From a virus, in IMG/VR virus record IMGVR_UViG_3300009157_000027, positions 1 to 43,659 of that record: 43,659 nucleotides of DNA; one strand, written 5' to 3'. The position numbers were made by a program, and so were the translations under genes. The notes below the pieces were generated by a model, which searched no databases, was not told where the DNA came from, and saw nothing but the letters and a program-made list of their open reading frames with translations. Of the stretch, positions 20,489-24,596 are shown piece by piece (positions within the stretch are counted from its first letter, which is position 1; every line of letters begins with the position of its first letter).

Positions 20489-20642
20489 TATCGTCCTTCA
20501 GATCGTCGAATCTTATCTCGTGGTTGAACTGGTCTATCTGTCCAATACGCTTATTGTAATGCAGCAGCCAGATAAAAGCGAGGAACATGCCTACAGCAAG
20601 TCCAATCATTGTACCGATTAATGCGCCAATCACGACGTCCAT
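20457..20642 (-). CDS. 61-residue membrane protein
   Basis: The N-terminal helix at about 3-27 (VVIGALIGTMIGLAVGMFLAF) has glycine spacing that favours helix packing; the rest is a charged, soluble tail (FNHEIRFDDLKDDNAER). The ATG shares a base with the stop of the 26-residue gene upstream (TGATG), which decides the start over a GTG one codon earlier. The 3' end overlaps the next gene by 32 bases. Confidence 0.7.
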   Translation of the reverse strand: MDVVIGALIGTMIGLAVGMFLAFIWLLHYNKRIGQIDQFNHEIRFDDLKDDNAERTARDDH

Positions 20643-20722
20643 CACCTCTTAGGTCCGCGTGTGCAAGCGAGCACAAGTGCTATGTACAACGCAAATGCGA
20701 TCAATAGCATCCCGCCAATCAT
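20642..20722 (-). CDS. 26-residue membrane peptide
   Basis: Read directly from the bases: M-I-G-G-M-L-L-I-A-F-A-L-Y-I-A-L-V-L-A-C then T-R-G-P-K-R. Almost all hydrophobic with a basic end. The start overlaps the stop of the upstream gene (ATGA), GGAGG lies seven bases before it, and its stop overlaps the next start (TGATG). It is coupled on both sides, which is strong evidence for so short a gene. Likely a single-helix membrane peptide. Confidence 0.65.
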   Translation of the reverse strand: MIGGMLLIAFALYIALVLACTRGPKR

Positions 20723-21135
20723 GCAACATCCTCCAGCCGAATTCGTTCTGCTTGATGCCCGCCAGCATTTGGGAGCTTTCCGTTAAAATACTTGGAGATC
20801 ACTGGTTCAGATACACCAATCTTTCTTGCGTAAGCCCGTTGTGATGCGTAGTACTTGTTCGTGTCAATGTCTCGCACGAGATATCCATCAAAACCTCGTC
20901 CAACGTTGTTTGTCACGCTCACAACGTTTGTCTGAGCAGATAAAATTGAATGAGGGCGCATGGTAATCGAAGTCTCTGCAGTCTCCGATCCATAGACTCC
21001 GCCATTGGCTAGTGTCTCATAACGCCCTCTCACTATAACAACTGCAATTCCTACGAACGCAGCTCCAGCACCAAATGCCGCATAGCGATCTGCGTTATCT
21101 CGGAAGTGCTTCTTCACTCGGTCGATGAATTCCAT
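20719..21135 (-). CDS. Membrane-anchored protein with NUMOD1-like DNA-binding domain (A)
   Basis: 138 residues, ATG with AGGAGTAATC upstream. One hydrophobic segment at about 16-35 (RYAAFGAGAAFVGIAVVIV), a linker, then a C-terminal domain (about 88-138): NKYYASQRAYARKIGVSEPVISKYFNGK. This is the helix-turn-helix type seen in NUMOD1 modules (S..A.A..IGVS...ISK.. NGK). A paralogue lies at 21331-21690. Fusion of a DNA-binding-type module to a membrane anchor is unusual. A long folded leader precedes it. Confidence 0.7.
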   Translation of the reverse strand: MEFIDRVKKHFRDNADRYAAFGAGAAFVGIAVVIVRGRYETLANGGVYGSETAETSITMRPHSILSAQTNVVSVTNNVGRGFDGYLVRDIDTNKYYASQRAYARKIGVSEPVISKYFNGKLPNAGGHQAERIRLEDVA

Positions 21136-21262
21136 GATTACTCCTGTCAGTAAAAGAAAATGAGAGGCTAGGGCCCGCTGCCTAACGAAAACAGCGATTA
21201 GCGACCTTTCTTCGTCGCGCCAGGTGGGTGGGGTTTGCTCCCACTCATTCGTATCTCACCTT
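21136..21262 (-). ncRNA. Structured leader of the NUMOD1-like gene A
   Basis: The transcript from the promoter at 21269-21294 can form GAATGAG/CTCATTT (21244-21250 with 21158-21164) around three hairpins: GTGGG/CCCAC (21228-21244), GCGAC/GTCGC (21201-21218) and CGCTG/CAGCG (21176-21196). A TTTTCTTTT run follows, then the AGGAG ribosome site. It may act as an attenuator or a protein-binding leader. Confidence 0.45.
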
Positions 21263-21268
21263 CCTCTC

Positions 21269-21294
21269 ATTATAGGACCTGCGAAAATGACGAA
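21269..21294 (-). promoter_or_regulatory. Repeated phage promoter, near-consensus
   Basis: TTCGTC, 14 bases ending GCAGGTCC, TATAATG. It heads the leader of gene 20719-21135. Confidence 0.8.
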
Positions 21295-21325
21295 CAAAAA
21301 GGGAAAGCCCATGTGGGCCCTCCCT
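21295..21325 (-). terminator. Intrinsic terminator
   Basis: Minus-strand GGGAGGGCCC-ACAT-GGGCTTTCCC followed by TTTTTG, directly abutting the next promoter. Confidence 0.85.
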
Positions 21326-21330
21326 CTCGA

Positions 21331-21690
21331 TCATGTCGCTACGGCAACGATCTCATAGATCACTCCGTTGACGTGATCCGTATGCCCGTTCAAATGCTTG
21401 GACATTACGGGCACCGAAACGTTGGCATTCTTCGCAGCTTCGGTCACTGACCCGAAATATCGGTCAAGTTCTCGGCAGTACACAATCTTTCGAAGATGTC
21501 CTCCGAGAGAAGACGTCGCCAAGTTGTTGAACACTGGGGACACGTTGTTCACGATGATCGATGGTTGCTTCTTGAGCACAGCCGCGCCAAGCACAGCAAC
21601 GATCACGCCACACGCGGTGTAACCGTACGCGTGCTTATGCTTCGAGAAATGTGCCTTGATCTTCTCGAATCGGGTTTCGTCTTCCATCAT
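21331..21690 (-). CDS. Membrane-anchored protein with NUMOD1-like DNA-binding domain (B)
   Basis: 119 residues; two adjacent ATGs follow GAGGAGG. A basic, charged N-terminus (KIKAHFSKHKHA), one hydrophobic segment at about 20-38 (YTACGVIVAVLGAAVL), then a C-terminal domain: CRELDRYFGSVTEAAKNANV followed by S-V-P-V-M-S-K-H-L-N-G. It matches the paralogue at 20719-21135 in order and spacing. The frame extends 17 codons upstream through a folded leader, but the ribosome site supports the later start. It has its own promoter and terminator. It could bind DNA or RNA at the membrane. Confidence 0.7.
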   Translation of the reverse strand: MMEDETRFEKIKAHFSKHKHAYGYTACGVIVAVLGAAVLKKQPSIIVNNVSPVFNNLATSSLGGHLRKIVYCRELDRYFGSVTEAAKNANVSVPVMSKHLNGHTDHVNGVIYEIVAVAT

Positions 21691-21710
21691 GGCCTCCTCA
21701 GATAAGTGAA

Positions 21711-21787
21711 AGAAGATGTTCTCTTGGTGTCGTACAGTCACGTCTCCAAGAGAGGAATCCGTACAGTCACGAGTTCCTCATCTTCTC
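21711..21787 (-). ncRNA. Twin-loop leader of the NUMOD1-like gene B
   Basis: Two hairpins show the same 12-base loop sequence CGTGACTGTACG: GAGGAA/TTCCTC (21752-21779) and CTCTTGG/CCAAGAG (21721-21752). The stems differ, the loops are identical. An outer pairing (21779-21787 with 21710-21718) closes both. The AGGAGG ribosome site follows. The layout suggests binding sites for an RNA-binding protein. Confidence 0.6.
21731..21771. repeat. 12-bp direct repeat in hairpin loops
   Basis: CGTACAGTCACG occurs at 21731-21742 and 21760-21771, 29 bases apart, each in the loop of a different hairpin. Confidence 0.9.
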
Positions 21788-21789
21788 TC

Positions 21790-21815
21790 ACTATAAGACT
21801 TGTAAATATGACGAA
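21790..21815 (-). promoter_or_regulatory. Repeated phage promoter
   Basis: TTCGTC, 14 bases ending ACAAGTCT, TATAGTG. It drives gene 21331-21690. Confidence 0.75.
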
Positions 21816-21821
21816 GATATA

Positions 21822-21929
21822 AAAAGAAGAATTCACACATTGCCTGGTGCTTGCCAGGTTCGGTGTCCCGCTGAACGGGTTTTGCACCTTAGTGTCCCGC
21901 TGAACGGGTTTTGCACTAACTGTGAATTC
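21822..21929 (-). ncRNA. Self-contained phage small RNA with paired twin hairpins
   Basis: Between promoter 21935-21960 and the next promoter there is no open frame, only this fold. The closing stem AGAAGAATTCACA/TGTGAATTCTTCT (21825-21837 with 21921-21933, 13 bp, about eight of them downstream of the expected start site) ends in CTTCTTTTTAT, an intrinsic terminator. Inside are two hairpins (21891-21917 and 21862-21888). On the RNA each reads RGTG, CAAAA, CCCG, loop TTCAG, CGGG, A, CACY; the only differences are A-T versus G-C at the outer pair, a compensatory change. A third hairpin is CCTGG/CCAGG (21843-21858). Length about 105 nt. Function unknown: decoy, antisense or protein-binding RNA. 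Confidence 0.75.
21862..21917. repeat. Tandem 27-nt hairpin repeat
   Basis: Two copies (21862-21888, 21891-21917) identical except at the first and last base, which change together and keep the pair. Confidence 0.9.
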
Positions 21930-21934
21930 TTCTC

Positions 21935-21960
21935 ATTATAGGACCTGCAGAAATGACGAA
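21935..21960 (-). promoter_or_regulatory. Repeated phage promoter of the small RNA
   Basis: TTCGTC, 14 bases ending GCAGGTCC, TATAATG. No protein gene lies between it and the next promoter. Confidence 0.8.
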
Positions 21961-21991
21961 CGAAAAGGAAAGTGCATTGCTGCACCCTCCT
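21961..21991 (-). terminator. Intrinsic terminator with GCAA loop
   Basis: Minus-strand GGTGCA-GCAA-TGCACTTTCC then TTTTCG. It ends the 60-residue membrane gene. Confidence 0.8.
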
Positions 21992-21997
21992 TCAAGT

Positions 21998-22180
21998 TCA
22001 TCGGTCGTAAGGTCGGTTCCTCACTCGGTAGTCGACCTGCTTGGCGTAGGCATGACGACTCTGTGCTTGGCTCACCGCGTTCACGACTGCGACAGCTGCA
22101 ATAACAGCTCCCGAGCCGACCGCGATTACCCGCATAGGGTCCTCATCCCAATACTCCTTCAGCTTGGTCTTCCAGCTCAT
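21998..22180 (-). CDS. 60-residue membrane protein
   Basis: N-terminal acidic and basic stretch (SWKTKLKEYWDEDP), one hydrophobic segment at about 17-37 (RVIAVGSGAVIAAVAVVNAV), then a basic, polar tail (SRHAYAKQVDYRVRNRP). GGAGTAATC precedes the ATG. Its own promoter and GCAA-loop terminator flank it. Function unknown; same design as the cassettes at 6.0-7.0 kb. Confidence 0.75.
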   Translation of the reverse strand: MSWKTKLKEYWDEDPMRVIAVGSGAVIAAVAVVNAVSQAQSRHAYAKQVDYRVRNRPYDR

Positions 22181-22206
22181 GATTACTCCTTTGCTCGATC
22201 TCTCTC

Positions 22207-22232
22207 ATTATACGGATTGTGAATTTTGCGAA
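22207..22232 (-). promoter_or_regulatory. Repeated phage promoter inside the end of the upstream gene
   Basis: TTCGCA, 14 bases ending ACAATCCG, TATAATG. The TAA stop of the secreted-protein gene lies inside the -10 element. Confidence 0.75.
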
Positions 22233-23164
22233 CTATGATCCTTTCGACGAGCTGCCGACAAGAAGATGAGCCCGATAACAATCAACGACACTCCTCCCAC
22301 AATAACAATAAGAAATGGAAAGCCGGTTTGAGCTATTGGAGTTTTAGGCACAATCACGATCGTTGCCGGAGGACTCGTTACGTTCGTATACGTCGCAGGC
22401 GGTGCCGTAGTTCCTGACGCGTGCGTACTCGGAACCGTAGTTGGCACACTTGTGGGCGGGATGGTTGTAGGAGGAACTGTTGTAGTCGGTATTGTTGTTG
22501 AAGGAGGAACGACACAAGAAAGATATGTCCCGTTCTTAGCCGATATAACCGTCGTGCGAGTGTCTGCTGTAGCCTTCCCCTGCTGAACACGAAGATCATG
22601 GGAGAAGAACGAGCCAGATGGACCAACGTCTTGGAGTGGGATTCCGACAATAGCATCCAGCTGATAGTCACACCCAAGGCCAAACCTAGCAAGATCAGGC
22701 ATCGGGAAAGTAATTTCGCCTGGGCCGGCGACAAGAAATTCGACACTGTAGCCTCCATTAGGTCCAGTTAGCTGATCCACGTTTGGATCGAACGAAGGTC
22801 CAAGCGCAACCTTCACTACGAAGGACACCGCGGACCCAATACACTCGGGCGCGACGTCCGTCCATGCCATGCGAACTAGATCGCCTTGACCAAGAACAGG
22901 TAGATCTGCAAGATCAGGAACTGGTCCGAATTCTTGCGAGCCACCGGTGGCAACAAGCCGCGCACCGAATGTCGGGTTAAGTACGCCACTGAAATCACAT
23001 CCCGGTGTGAGAAATGCTTGTGGAGTTCCCGGATATGTTGCGTAGTCCGTGACAAGCGGAGGACGTTGATCGTCAGGGATCTGCGCGCTTGCGGTCTGTG
23101 CGAACACAAACATGGATATGATCATGAAACCTAGTAGGACTGGTACCTTGCTGTGTCGAACCAT
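22208..23164 (-). CDS. Secreted surface protein with sortase-type C-terminal signal
   Basis: 318 residues; the ATG follows GGGGAGAAGAT, and the earlier in-frame ATG has no site. Signal peptide 1-27 (VRHSKVPVLLGFMIISMF, cleavage near A-S-A/Q). Residues about 30-210 form a predicted beta-rich extracellular domain with several cysteines. A Pro/Thr-rich linker follows (TTIPTTTVPPTT-type). The end has IAQTG, a hydrophobic helix and a basic tail (SAARRKDH), the layout of a cell-wall sorting signal; actinobacterial class E sortases recognise LAXTG. A phage-made protein on the host surface could block superinfection or change adhesion. Membrane anchoring without sortase is the alternative. Not a virion protein by position. 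Confidence 0.75.
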   Translation of the reverse strand: MVRHSKVPVLLGFMIISMFVFAQTASAQIPDDQRPPLVTDYATYPGTPQAFLTPGCDFSGVLNPTFGARLVATGGSQEFGPVPDLADLPVLGQGDLVRMAWTDVAPECIGSAVSFVVKVALGPSFDPNVDQLTGPNGGYSVEFLVAGPGEITFPMPDLARFGLGCDYQLDAIVGIPLQDVGPSGSFFSHDLRVQQGKATADTRTTVISAKNGTYLSCVVPPSTTIPTTTVPPTTIPPTSVPTTVPSTHASGTTAPPATYTNVTSPPATIVIVPKTPIAQTGFPFLIVIVGGVSLIVIGLIFLSAARRKDHSSQNSQSV

Positions 23165-23243
23165 ATCTTCTCCCCGTGGGTTGTAGAAAAATAAAAGGTC
23201 AGTGGCTGCCATCTAGTGACAGGCTCCGTTTCAACTCCCTTTC

Positions 23244-23269
23244 ATTATAGGATCTGTAAATATGACGAA
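23244..23269 (-). promoter_or_regulatory. Repeated phage promoter
   Basis: TTCGTC, 14 bases ending ACAGATCC, TATAATG. It drives the secreted-protein gene. Confidence 0.8.
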
Positions 23270-23271
23270 CG

Positions 23272-23375
23272 AAAAAAGAAAGCAGTAGCTCGTGGTCCTT
23301 ATCTACTCATCAGCCAACATTGACGTCTTTGGCGTGAGCGTATCAGCTCTTAGCTATCAGCCAGATAGACTGCTC
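23272..23375 (-). ncRNA. Second candidate small RNA
   Basis: No open frame between promoter 23380-23405 and the promoter at 23244-23269. GAGAGCAGT/ACTGCTTTC (23369-23377 with 23278-23286, one G-T) closes the fold and is followed by CTTTTTTC. Inside are CTATC/GATAG (23354-23368), GAGC/GCTC (23336-23349) and GCCAA/TTGGC (23313-23333). No repeat supports it, so it is weaker than the RNA at 21.9 kb. Confidence 0.5.
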
Positions 23376-23379
23376 TCTC

Positions 23380-23405
23380 ATTATAGGACCTGTAAAAAAT
23401 ACGAA
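23380..23405 (-). promoter_or_regulatory. Repeated phage promoter of the second RNA
   Basis: TTCGTA, 14 bases ending ACAGGTCC, TATAATG. Confidence 0.8.
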
Positions 23406-23436
23406 CGAAAAAGGAAAGTCATTGCTGACTCTCCCT
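23406..23436 (-). terminator. Intrinsic terminator with GCAA loop
   Basis: Minus-strand GAGAGTCA-GCAA-TGACTTTCC then TTTTTCG. It ends the 74-residue membrane gene. Confidence 0.8.
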
Positions 23437-23441
23437 CGGGT

Positions 23442-23666
23442 TCACTCCTCTGGTGATTGCGATGCTTGCTCCACTGCGACCTTGCGGATCGTGTCAGCGA
23501 GCACGACAACCACGACGGCGATCGTGAGCTTCTTGATACTCCGCTCCAGCATTCGGCCAATGATAATGGCTTTTTGCTCGAACGTAGCACCAGTCGGCTC
23601 CTCGATTCCCGGCTTGGTCTTCGGCTCCTTGACAAGATTCACTTGGATCTTGCGCTTCCTCAGCAT
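23442..23666 (-). CDS. 74-residue membrane protein
   Basis: A basic, Pro-containing N-terminus (LRKRKIQVNLVKEPKTKPG), a helical part, one hydrophobic segment at about 45-60 (KKLTIAVVVVVLADTI) and a short polar tail. ATG behind AAAGGATTAGGT. A one-gene cassette with its own promoter and terminator. Function unknown. Confidence 0.75.
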   Translation of the reverse strand: MLRKRKIQVNLVKEPKTKPGIEEPTGATFEQKAIIIGRMLERSIKKLTIAVVVVVLADTIRKVAVEQASQSPEE

Positions 23667-23692
23667 ACCTAATCCTTTCGATTATGTCTCCC

Positions 23693-23718
23693 ATTATAGG
23701 ACTTGTTTATTTGACGAA
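23693..23718 (-). promoter_or_regulatory. Repeated phage promoter
   Basis: TTCGTC, 14 bases ending ACAAGTCC, TATAATG. It drives the 74-residue membrane gene. Confidence 0.8.
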
Positions 23719-23875
23719 AGGTTTTCAGACACTTCCCCCCGGGAATTTTTTGGCTTTGAAAAGGGGCATTTTGTCTGAGAGGCCTCTATTTGCCGTTCTA
23801 AGCCGTTTGACCCCATTACGGGTATAATCGTACCGAATATAAGCCAGAAACGCAGCAGAGGGCTCTATACGCGGA

Positions 23876-23911
23876 GAAAAAAAGCTCAGGAGCCATGTTT
23901 CCACAGCTCCC
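23876..23911 (-). terminator. Intrinsic terminator ending the late transcript
   Basis: Minus-strand GGAGC/GCTCC with inner TGT/ACA pairs, then GAGCTTTTTTTC. It follows the 100-residue membrane gene. Confidence 0.75.
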
Positions 23912-23929
23912 TAGCTTTCCGAGACCCTT

Positions 23930-24232
23930 TCAGGTTATACGCGGCTCCGTCTTGTTCACAAACGTCAACGCTCTCGAAGCCATCACATGCTTCTGCTCGT
24001 ACGCGACAATGGCCAGGATCCCGAGGATGTTACCAGCCACGATCAGTACTGTGTTCGGGTCAATCCGACGCAGGCGTTTCTCTTCTTCCGCCTTGATCTT
24101 CATCAACCCGTCCAGGTACCGAACGAAGTTGTCAAACTCCTCGTTCTCCGGACCAAACTCGTTCATCCGAGTCAGAACCAATGCAATTGGCTCGTCGAGC
24201 ACCGACTGCTTGCGCTTCCAACGTGCAAACAT
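23930..24232 (-). CDS. Conserved phage membrane protein (100 residues)
   Basis: Soluble helical N-terminus (FARWKRKQSVLDEPIALVL, then FGPENEEFDNFVRYLDGLM), one hydrophobic segment at about 60-77 (NTVLIVAGNILGILAIVAY) and a short tail with EQKHVMASRAL. I remember the D-P-N-T-x-L-x-x-x-G-N-x-x-G-I-L-x-I-x-x-Y-E-Q-x-H-V block from many phages of Gram-positive hosts. ATG with AGGAGAATA upstream. Function unknown. Confidence 0.75.
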   Translation of the reverse strand: MFARWKRKQSVLDEPIALVLTRMNEFGPENEEFDNFVRYLDGLMKIKAEEEKRLRRIDPNTVLIVAGNILGILAIVAYEQKHVMASRALTFVNKTEPRIT

Positions 24233-24252
24233 TATTCTCCTCTCGTAGTCTC

Positions 24253-24278
24253 ATTATAGGAGTTGCTTATTCTGCGAC
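24253..24278 (-). promoter_or_regulatory. Repeated phage promoter, partial match
   Basis: GTCGCA, 14 bases ending GCAACTCC, TATAATG. It overlaps the end of the holin-like gene and drives the 100-residue gene. Confidence 0.65.
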
Positions 24279-24596
24279 ATCAACGACTTTGAAAGTAATG
24301 GCCTCCATGTGCTCTATTTCCTCTGGAGTTTTACTCAATTCCAAAGAAAATACCTTCTTTCCTTCCATTGTCTCAGATATGACCAACGATCCTTGGAACA
24401 ACACGTTCGGATCGTATTTCTTATAGGCAAATTGGACAATTAGGCCGGATATGGCTGCTAGCACAACTAATATGCCAATAACTTGGCTTTCGTTGGGCAT
24501 AGCATAGATTTGACTCAATCCAAAGTAAATAGCCCCACTTGCGGGGAATATGATCCTATTCAATGTCTTAATTAGATTATATATTCTATGGTTCAT
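24267..24596 (-). CDS. r1t-type holin candidate
   Basis: 109 residues. The N-terminal half has two hydrophobic segments (about 15-30, IIFPASGAIYFGLSQIY; 38-58, VIGILVVLAAISGLIVQFAY) with the P-A-x-x-x-x-Y-F-x-L-x-x-I-x-x-x-P pattern of r1t-type phage holins. The C-terminal half is a soluble tail (GSLVISETMEGKKVFSLEL) also seen behind such holins. It lies directly after the tail genes, whereas the endolysin is 15 kb away. ATG behind GGGGTGTAGAC. The lysis gene pair near 8.7-9.2 kb is a competing holin. Confidence 0.65.
   Translation of the reverse strand: MNHRIYNLIKTLNRIIFPASGAIYFGLSQIYAMPNESQVIGILVVLAAISGLIVQFAYKKYDPNVLFQGSLVISETMEGKKVFSLELSKTPEEIEHMEAITFKVVDVAE

What the first reader, a model, noticed from the sequence alone, without database searches (positions are those of the whole stretch)
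21822..21960. Phage small RNA with duplicated hairpins and a compensatory base change
A full transcription unit with no protein: promoter 21935-21960, a fold of about 105 nt, then an intrinsic terminator. Two 27-nt hairpins are identical except at the outermost pair (A-T in one, G-C in the other), so the pair was kept while the bases changed. Each has an asymmetric internal loop (CAAAA opposite A) and a TTCAG loop. A 13-bp stem closes the whole RNA. It occupies a gene slot in the cassette array. It may bind a protein in two copies, or act as an antisense or decoy RNA. I do not recognise it as a known class.
Basis: seen in the sequence. Interest (0 to 1): 0.88.

Follow-up and report, generated by a model that had tools for sequence, protein, structure and literature searches.

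The report
Phage RNAs displaying repeated hairpin motifs
This virus of (probably) an actinobacterium makes a small RNA that displays copies of one hairpin on a branched scaffold, and related viruses carry whole rows of such RNAs with different hairpins beside genes for a small membrane protein; the RNA class appears undescribed, and it may work as bait that ties up a protein of the host.

Summary
It is a conserved family: nine different viral records hold it, including the isolated Arthrobacter phage Qui. Over 20 hairpins the asymmetric loop (CAAAA opposite A) and the GUG/CAC clamp stay fixed, while flanking pairs covary and terminal loops change freely. Rfam has no match.

It is one of many. 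Related Gordonia, Rhodococcus and uncultured phages carry arrays of promoter-driven RNAs, each showing 2-3 copies of one motif; one contig has at least six within 1.7 kb. The RNAs cluster next to genes for a small membrane protein with a NUMOD-type helix-turn-helix. A check on five further phages found a structured RNA behind that gene in all five, with repeats in two.

Best guess: a multivalent decoy or ligand RNA acting in trans, probably counter-defence. The partner is unknown, no transcript was measured, and a role together with the membrane protein is the main rival.

The parts
21935..21968 (-). phage promoter: TATAAT (21940-21935) with the shared upstream block TTCGTTCGTC..TGCAGGTCC
   Evidence: 11 copies of the 12-mer in the window, 0 of 100 shuffles as many; aligned copies
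21824..21934 (-). RNA of family C: four-way junction with three hairpins, closed by a 13-bp stem
   Evidence: fold z -5.4; homologues; 17 of 28 consensus pairs with compensatory change in four sequences
21921..21933 (-). 5' arm of the closing stem
   Evidence: different sequence, still paired, in relatives
21889..21919 (-). hairpin 1: UUAGUG-CAAAA-CCCGUUCAGCGGG-A-CACUAA
21862..21888 (-). hairpin 2: GGUG-CAAAA-CCCGUUCAGCGGG-A-CACC
21843..21858 (-). hairpin 3: CCUGG-CAAGCA-CCAGG; same loop with swapped stem letters in contig G006 (CCCAG-CAAGCA-CUGGG)
21821..21837 (-). 3' arm of the closing stem (21837-21825) running into the U-tract; together an intrinsic terminator
21708..21789 (-). second RNA element (family B) with its own promoter (TTATAGTGAGA): two hairpins carrying CGUGACUGUACG; ends just before the ribosome site of the 119-aa gene, so also its 5' leader
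   Evidence: related RNA in G004 (L061 7460)
21331..21690 (-). small membrane protein with C-terminal NUMOD-like helix-turn-helix (119 aa), candidate partner
21160..21274 (-). third structured RNA (family P5), no internal repeat; related RNAs in Gordonia phages Secretariat, Hydrus, Artorias and Odesza and Arthrobacter phage Qui
20719..21135 (-). second membrane helix-turn-helix protein (138 aa)

Best explanation
An RNA gene whose product works in trans. Shown by sequence comparison: a promoter-driven RNA, closed by a long stem that doubles as terminator, presents two or three copies of a hairpin whose clamp (GUG/CAC) and asymmetric internal loop (C/A)AAA(A/C) opposite A are held fixed while stem and loop letters change. 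Shown: other RNAs of the same arrays use the same plan with other motifs, and in one scaffold type the displayed motif differs between RNAs while the scaffold stays. Inferred: the fixed internal loop is a binding site, the copies give avidity, and the RNA is a decoy (sponge) that occupies an RNA-binding protein, most likely a host nuclease or other defence factor, during infection. The variety of motifs per phage would then reflect a variety of targets.
For: Structure conserved through sequence change: 97.4% of cells paired, covariation score 0.620 against 0.137 in shuffles, and the score collapses when partners are slid. A descriptor with a strict clamp run over 1.33 Mb of fetched DNA gave only true members as tandem pairs. 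Terminal loops not conserved, internal loop conserved. Many RNAs with 2-3 copies of a motif. Motif changed on a shared three-arm scaffold (Rickmore, ReqiPepy6, Artorias, Pherobrine, Odesza). Placed in the accessory gene array between tail genes and DNA polymerase. No tandem match in 84,980 bacterial and archaeal genomes beyond the chance number, fitting a virus-side device. Precedents for phage RNAs acting as mimics: pseudo-ToxI (PMC3475682) and RNA anti-CRISPRs (PMC10651486).
Against: No transcript, no binding partner and no phenotype is known. The single-sequence folds of G003, G004 and G008 are no better than shuffles, so structure there rests on comparison only; G008's unit has no clear terminator. 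Adjacency to membrane helix-turn-helix genes suggests a phage partner instead of a host target. Copies inside one RNA are often identical, so they could also reflect recent duplication.
Confidence: 0.42

Rival explanations
1. The RNA is the partner of the neighbouring membrane helix-turn-helix protein: the hairpins bind its NUMOD-like domain (or compete with its DNA target), forming a membrane-bound ribonucleoprotein of the phage.
For: 18 such genes in 14 of the first 18 stretches, nearly all followed by a promoter and structured RNA; the four stretches without the gene (Secretariat, Hydrus, Madamato, BluerMoon) showed no repeat-hairpin RNA. Family C lies closer to the gene than random placement, combined p about 3e-9. 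Behind five further genes found by tblastn, five structured RNAs, two with repeats. Proteins beside shared RNA families are more alike, 1 of 5000 permutations.
Against: NUMOD-type domains are known as DNA binders (I-HmuI, I-TevI). One or two such genes face up to about nine RNAs with unlike motifs. In contigs G003 and G008 family C is 0.5-1 kb away. Phage relatedness and array position confound the statistics.
Confidence: 0.27
2. RNA antitoxin mimic: the repeats neutralise a type III toxin (ToxN-like) of the host, as pseudo-ToxI does.
For: Tandem copies in one transcript, own promoter, A-rich single-stranded segment; several different RNAs per phage would fit several toxins.
Against: Repeats fold as nested hairpins with covarying stems, not as the pseudoknots of ToxI; a closing stem surrounds them; no matching tandem repeats in bacterial genomes.
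Confidence: 0.08
3. Aptamer sponge for a small signalling molecule used in defence (cyclic nucleotide or similar).
For: A conserved asymmetric internal loop with free stems is also how small-molecule aptamers look; protein sponges of this kind exist in phages (own knowledge).
Against: The conserved core is small (about 12 nt plus one opposite A); no ligand evidence.
Confidence: 0.06
4. A cis element only: terminator or insulator between genes, or leader of the next gene.
For: The closing stem plus U-tract is a terminator; family B is also the leader of the 119-aa gene.
Against: Has its own promoter and terminator; flanking genes differ between phages; a terminator needs neither two or three conserved hairpins nor a conserved internal loop.
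Confidence: 0.08
5. Antisense RNA pairing through the hairpin loops, or an RNA anti-CRISPR copying a host repeat.
For: Loop letters are nearly the same within an RNA but differ between phages, as a target-matching loop would.
Against: Loops of 3-7 nt with no shared sequence; duplicates share the whole apical stem too, so simple duplication explains the likeness. RNA anti-CRISPRs are solitary repeat units, here there are 2-3 in a junction.
Confidence: 0.09

Closest known systems
Pseudo-ToxI of phage PhiTE and type III RNA antitoxins (PMC3475682)
   Same: phage-encoded tandem repeats of a structured RNA unit thought to occupy a protein
   Different: units are nested hairpins, not pseudoknots; a closing stem surrounds them; no toxin gene; many motif families per phage
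RNA anti-CRISPRs, solitary repeat units (PMC10651486)
   Same: short structured RNA directly behind a promoter in phages, acting as mimic
   Different: two or three copies on a junction; no CRISPR repeat likeness was shown or tested
Highly transcribed noncoding RNAs of cluster A/CA actinophages (D29, Kampy, WC1; PMC10986025)
   Same: noncoding RNAs of actinobacterial phages, function unknown
   Different: other phage groups and genome positions; repeated hairpins not reported in the passages read
NUMOD-like domain of homing endonucleases (PF22083, I-HmuI)
   Same: fold of the neighbouring protein's C-terminal domain
   Different: no nuclease domain; an N-terminal membrane helix instead; next to an RNA gene
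Phage tRNAs against anticodon nucleases (PMC10264068)
   Same: phage RNA as a defence against host RNases; tRNA-like RNAs do occur in these arrays
   Different: family C is not tRNA-like

Membership tests
any Rfam 15 family | score above the curated threshold of one of 4227 models | tested here: not met
   window: only a Pistol ribozyme elsewhere; permissive scan of 20600-24400 gave only one chance-level hit, not on this RNA; relatives: none except one weak tRNA hit on another RNA
type III RNA antitoxin / pseudo-ToxI | tandem repeats of one RNA unit | tested here: met
   2-3 copies, spacing 29-35 nt
type III RNA antitoxin / pseudo-ToxI | each repeat folds as an H-type pseudoknot | tested here: not met
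   nested clamp and apical stem covary; no pseudoknot search was run
type III RNA antitoxin / pseudo-ToxI | repeat matches an antitoxin beside a ToxN-like toxin | tested here: inconclusive
   no tandem match beyond chance in 84,980 genomes; toxin models not searched next to it
RNA anti-CRISPR | solitary copy of a CRISPR repeat behind a promoter | tested here: inconclusive
   behind a promoter but 2-3 copies; likeness to CRISPR repeats not tested
CsrA-type sponge RNA | GGA in the hairpin loops | tested here: not met
   no GGA in any apical loop
kink-turn RNA | three-base bulge followed by tandem sheared G-A pairs | tested here: not met
   internal loop is CAAAA, AAAAA or CAAAC opposite A or C, with no G
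tRNA | cloverleaf with anticodon loop | tested here: not met
   ARAGORN none in the window

The most novel reading that the evidence does not exclude
A general viral RNA display platform: promoter-driven branched RNA scaffolds with exchangeable two- or threefold hairpin motifs, deployed in arrays next to a membrane-anchored helix-turn-helix protein, with each motif aimed at a different host factor.
Probability: 0.35. Interest if true: 0.93.

Novelty: categorically new. Interest (0 to 1): 0.82.

Why it matters
If right, a group of phages that includes easily grown Gordonia and Arthrobacter phages encodes a large, unannotated set of structured RNAs, at least one of which annotators have called as a protein. 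Motifs shared between phages of different hosts, repeated in copies and differing on a common scaffold, are what an RNA arms race would look like, and the binding targets could reveal unknown host defences or RNA-binding proteins. It also gives a cheap rule for finding more: look beside the membrane helix-turn-helix gene.

Tried and rejected
Rfam scans: nothing on these RNAs. Genome-wide tandem-hairpin scan: 21 scattered hits, none in an actinobacterium by title, fewer than the about 26 I estimated by chance; none passed the descriptor. Promoter-anchored viral scan and GTGAAAAA scan: no further true members. BLAST of G006, G004 and G005 RNAs against named phages found promoter and terminator blocks rather than family C; Qui came in through its promoter. 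L025 and other pattern hits are chance. An early idea that the G004 unit at L018 3680-3530 is family C was dropped: it is family P5. Anticodon-loop mimicry (contig G008 loops CUGUUAA/CUGUUAG like tRNA-Asn) was not general and is left as a lead. Host genomes could not be searched by model because the window is an unplaced virus record. Two attempts to find more membrane helix-turn-helix loci in viral contigs gave nothing new. The AlphaFold model of the 119-aa protein is good only in the C-terminal domain.

Full report
Observation. The unit lies on the minus strand. The -10 box is 21940-21935; the RNA would begin near 21934-21928 and ends in the U-tract from 21825. The closing stem is 13 bp (21933-21921 with 21837-21825). 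Two 25-nt copies are identical, and the next pair is A-U in one and G-C in the other. The fold is -43.7 kcal/mol, z -5.4. A third hairpin (21858-21843) makes it a four-way junction. The promoter is one of 11 copies of a phage element in the window; the -35 region is weak, and whether the first bases GAGA are in the transcript is unknown.

Homologues. An exact search found one near-identical contig. A tail-protein search found a contig (G001) whose end runs into the same RNA with different stem letters. Patterns built on the internal loop then gave contigs G003, G004, G005, G006, G007 and G008, and promoter similarity led to Arthrobacter phage Qui. That makes nine different records and 20 hairpins. 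In Qui the annotated gene 76 lies on the RNA and is probably a false call.

Covariation. Over 20 hairpins: first pair outside the clamp A-U, G-C, C-G or U-A in 17 of 20; clamp GUG/CAC in 19 and GAG/CUC in one; first two apical pairs 20 of 20 with three and five pair types. The internal loop is CAAAA (16), AAAAA (3) or CAAAC (1), opposite A (19) or C (1). On the cut-down alignment the covariation score is 0.620 against 0.137 in shuffles, and sliding the partners destroys it. Loops were cut out and the alignment was set by the conserved core, so this leans on the structure; copies within one RNA are not independent. For four full-length RNAs, 17 of 28 consensus pairs show compensatory change and the junction strands (AGUYA, UAAC or GAAC, AAUGU) are conserved. 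A descriptor run over 1.33 Mb of both-strand sequence returned only these RNAs as tandem pairs. Single-sequence folds are significant for the window, G005, G006 and G007 and weaker for Qui, but not for G003, G004 or G008.

A larger class. Promoter-driven RNAs of the same plan, with other motifs in 2-3 copies, occur across the phage group: CGUGAC..UACG (window, G004); AUUGC-loop hairpins (G008, Pherobrine, Artorias, Conley); AUCUUAGAAAUUCGAU (G003); and a three-arm scaffold starting ACCGCUUGGAAC with motifs CCGUUUGG or CCAUUGG, CACCUUUAUGAGGAG, and GCUGAUAAAGCGGA types in Rickmore, ReqiPepy6, Artorias, Pherobrine and Odesza. In the third of these types arm 1 differs from arms 2 and 3. Contig G008 has at least six repeat RNAs between 6063 and 7840 of L065. 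With an outer-stem rule, 11 of 140 promoters carry such a stem against 1 of 420 shuffles, and 9 of those 11 RNAs hold an internal repeat of 9-29 nt.

Neighbour protein. A small protein with a membrane helix (hydropathy peak 1.3-2.4) and a C-terminal NUMOD-like domain (PF22083 in 9 of 18 members, best 4e-9; pLDDT about 95 in that domain; I-TevI and I-HmuI among the top structural matches, though at E 0.06-0.3) is encoded 18 times in 14 of 18 stretches, and almost every copy is followed by a promoter and a structured RNA. The four stretches without it showed only other RNA types or none. Five further genes, chosen by protein similarity alone, had a structured RNA behind them in five of five, with repeats in two. 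Family C lies nearer to such a gene than chance in seven of nine records. In the window itself, family C and family B precede the 119-aa gene and P5 follows it. Relatedness of the phages weakens these statistics, and the first set was looked at before the rule was made.

Mechanism. What is shown is a conserved, repeated internal-loop motif on an RNA with its own promoter and terminator. What is inferred is that the motif binds something and that copies raise avidity. Lack of loop conservation argues against a shared antisense target. The spread of motifs and the accessory location favour decoys for host factors; the gene adjacency favours a partnership with the membrane protein. I put the decoy first at 0.42 and the partnership at 0.27; they do not exclude each other.

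Novelty. No Rfam match, no match to the known RNA kinds tested, and ten literature searches of an open-access library found no description; subscription papers and preprints were not covered. I therefore rate it categorically new, with the caution that the function is unknown.

Noticed in passing
window 9933-9879 (-): Pistol self-cleaving ribozyme by Rfam (44.2 bits, threshold 34.5).
   Followed up: no
window 23381-23278 (-) and 23250-23200 (-): Two more promoter-driven structured units without a gene; the first has an 11-bp closing stem.
   Followed up: partly
L051 4629, L052 7452, L089 1941, L092 3224, L093 3037: tRNA-like RNAs with a 4-nt cap where the anticodon loop should be, in five Gordonia phages; Rfam scores one as tRNA (33 bits), ARAGORN rejects all.
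   Followed up: partly
L094 6656-6790 (Arthrobacter phage Qui gene 76): Annotated protein gene lies on the three-hairpin RNA; probably a false gene call.
   Followed up: partly
L065 6063-6165: Repeat RNA whose loops CUGUUAA/CUGUUAG look like the anticodon loop of tRNA-Asn; may be chance.
   Followed up: no
window 22208-23212 (-): Predicted secreted protein with a C-terminal IAQTG-like cell-wall sorting motif and membrane tail; no Pfam or PHROG match.
   Followed up: no
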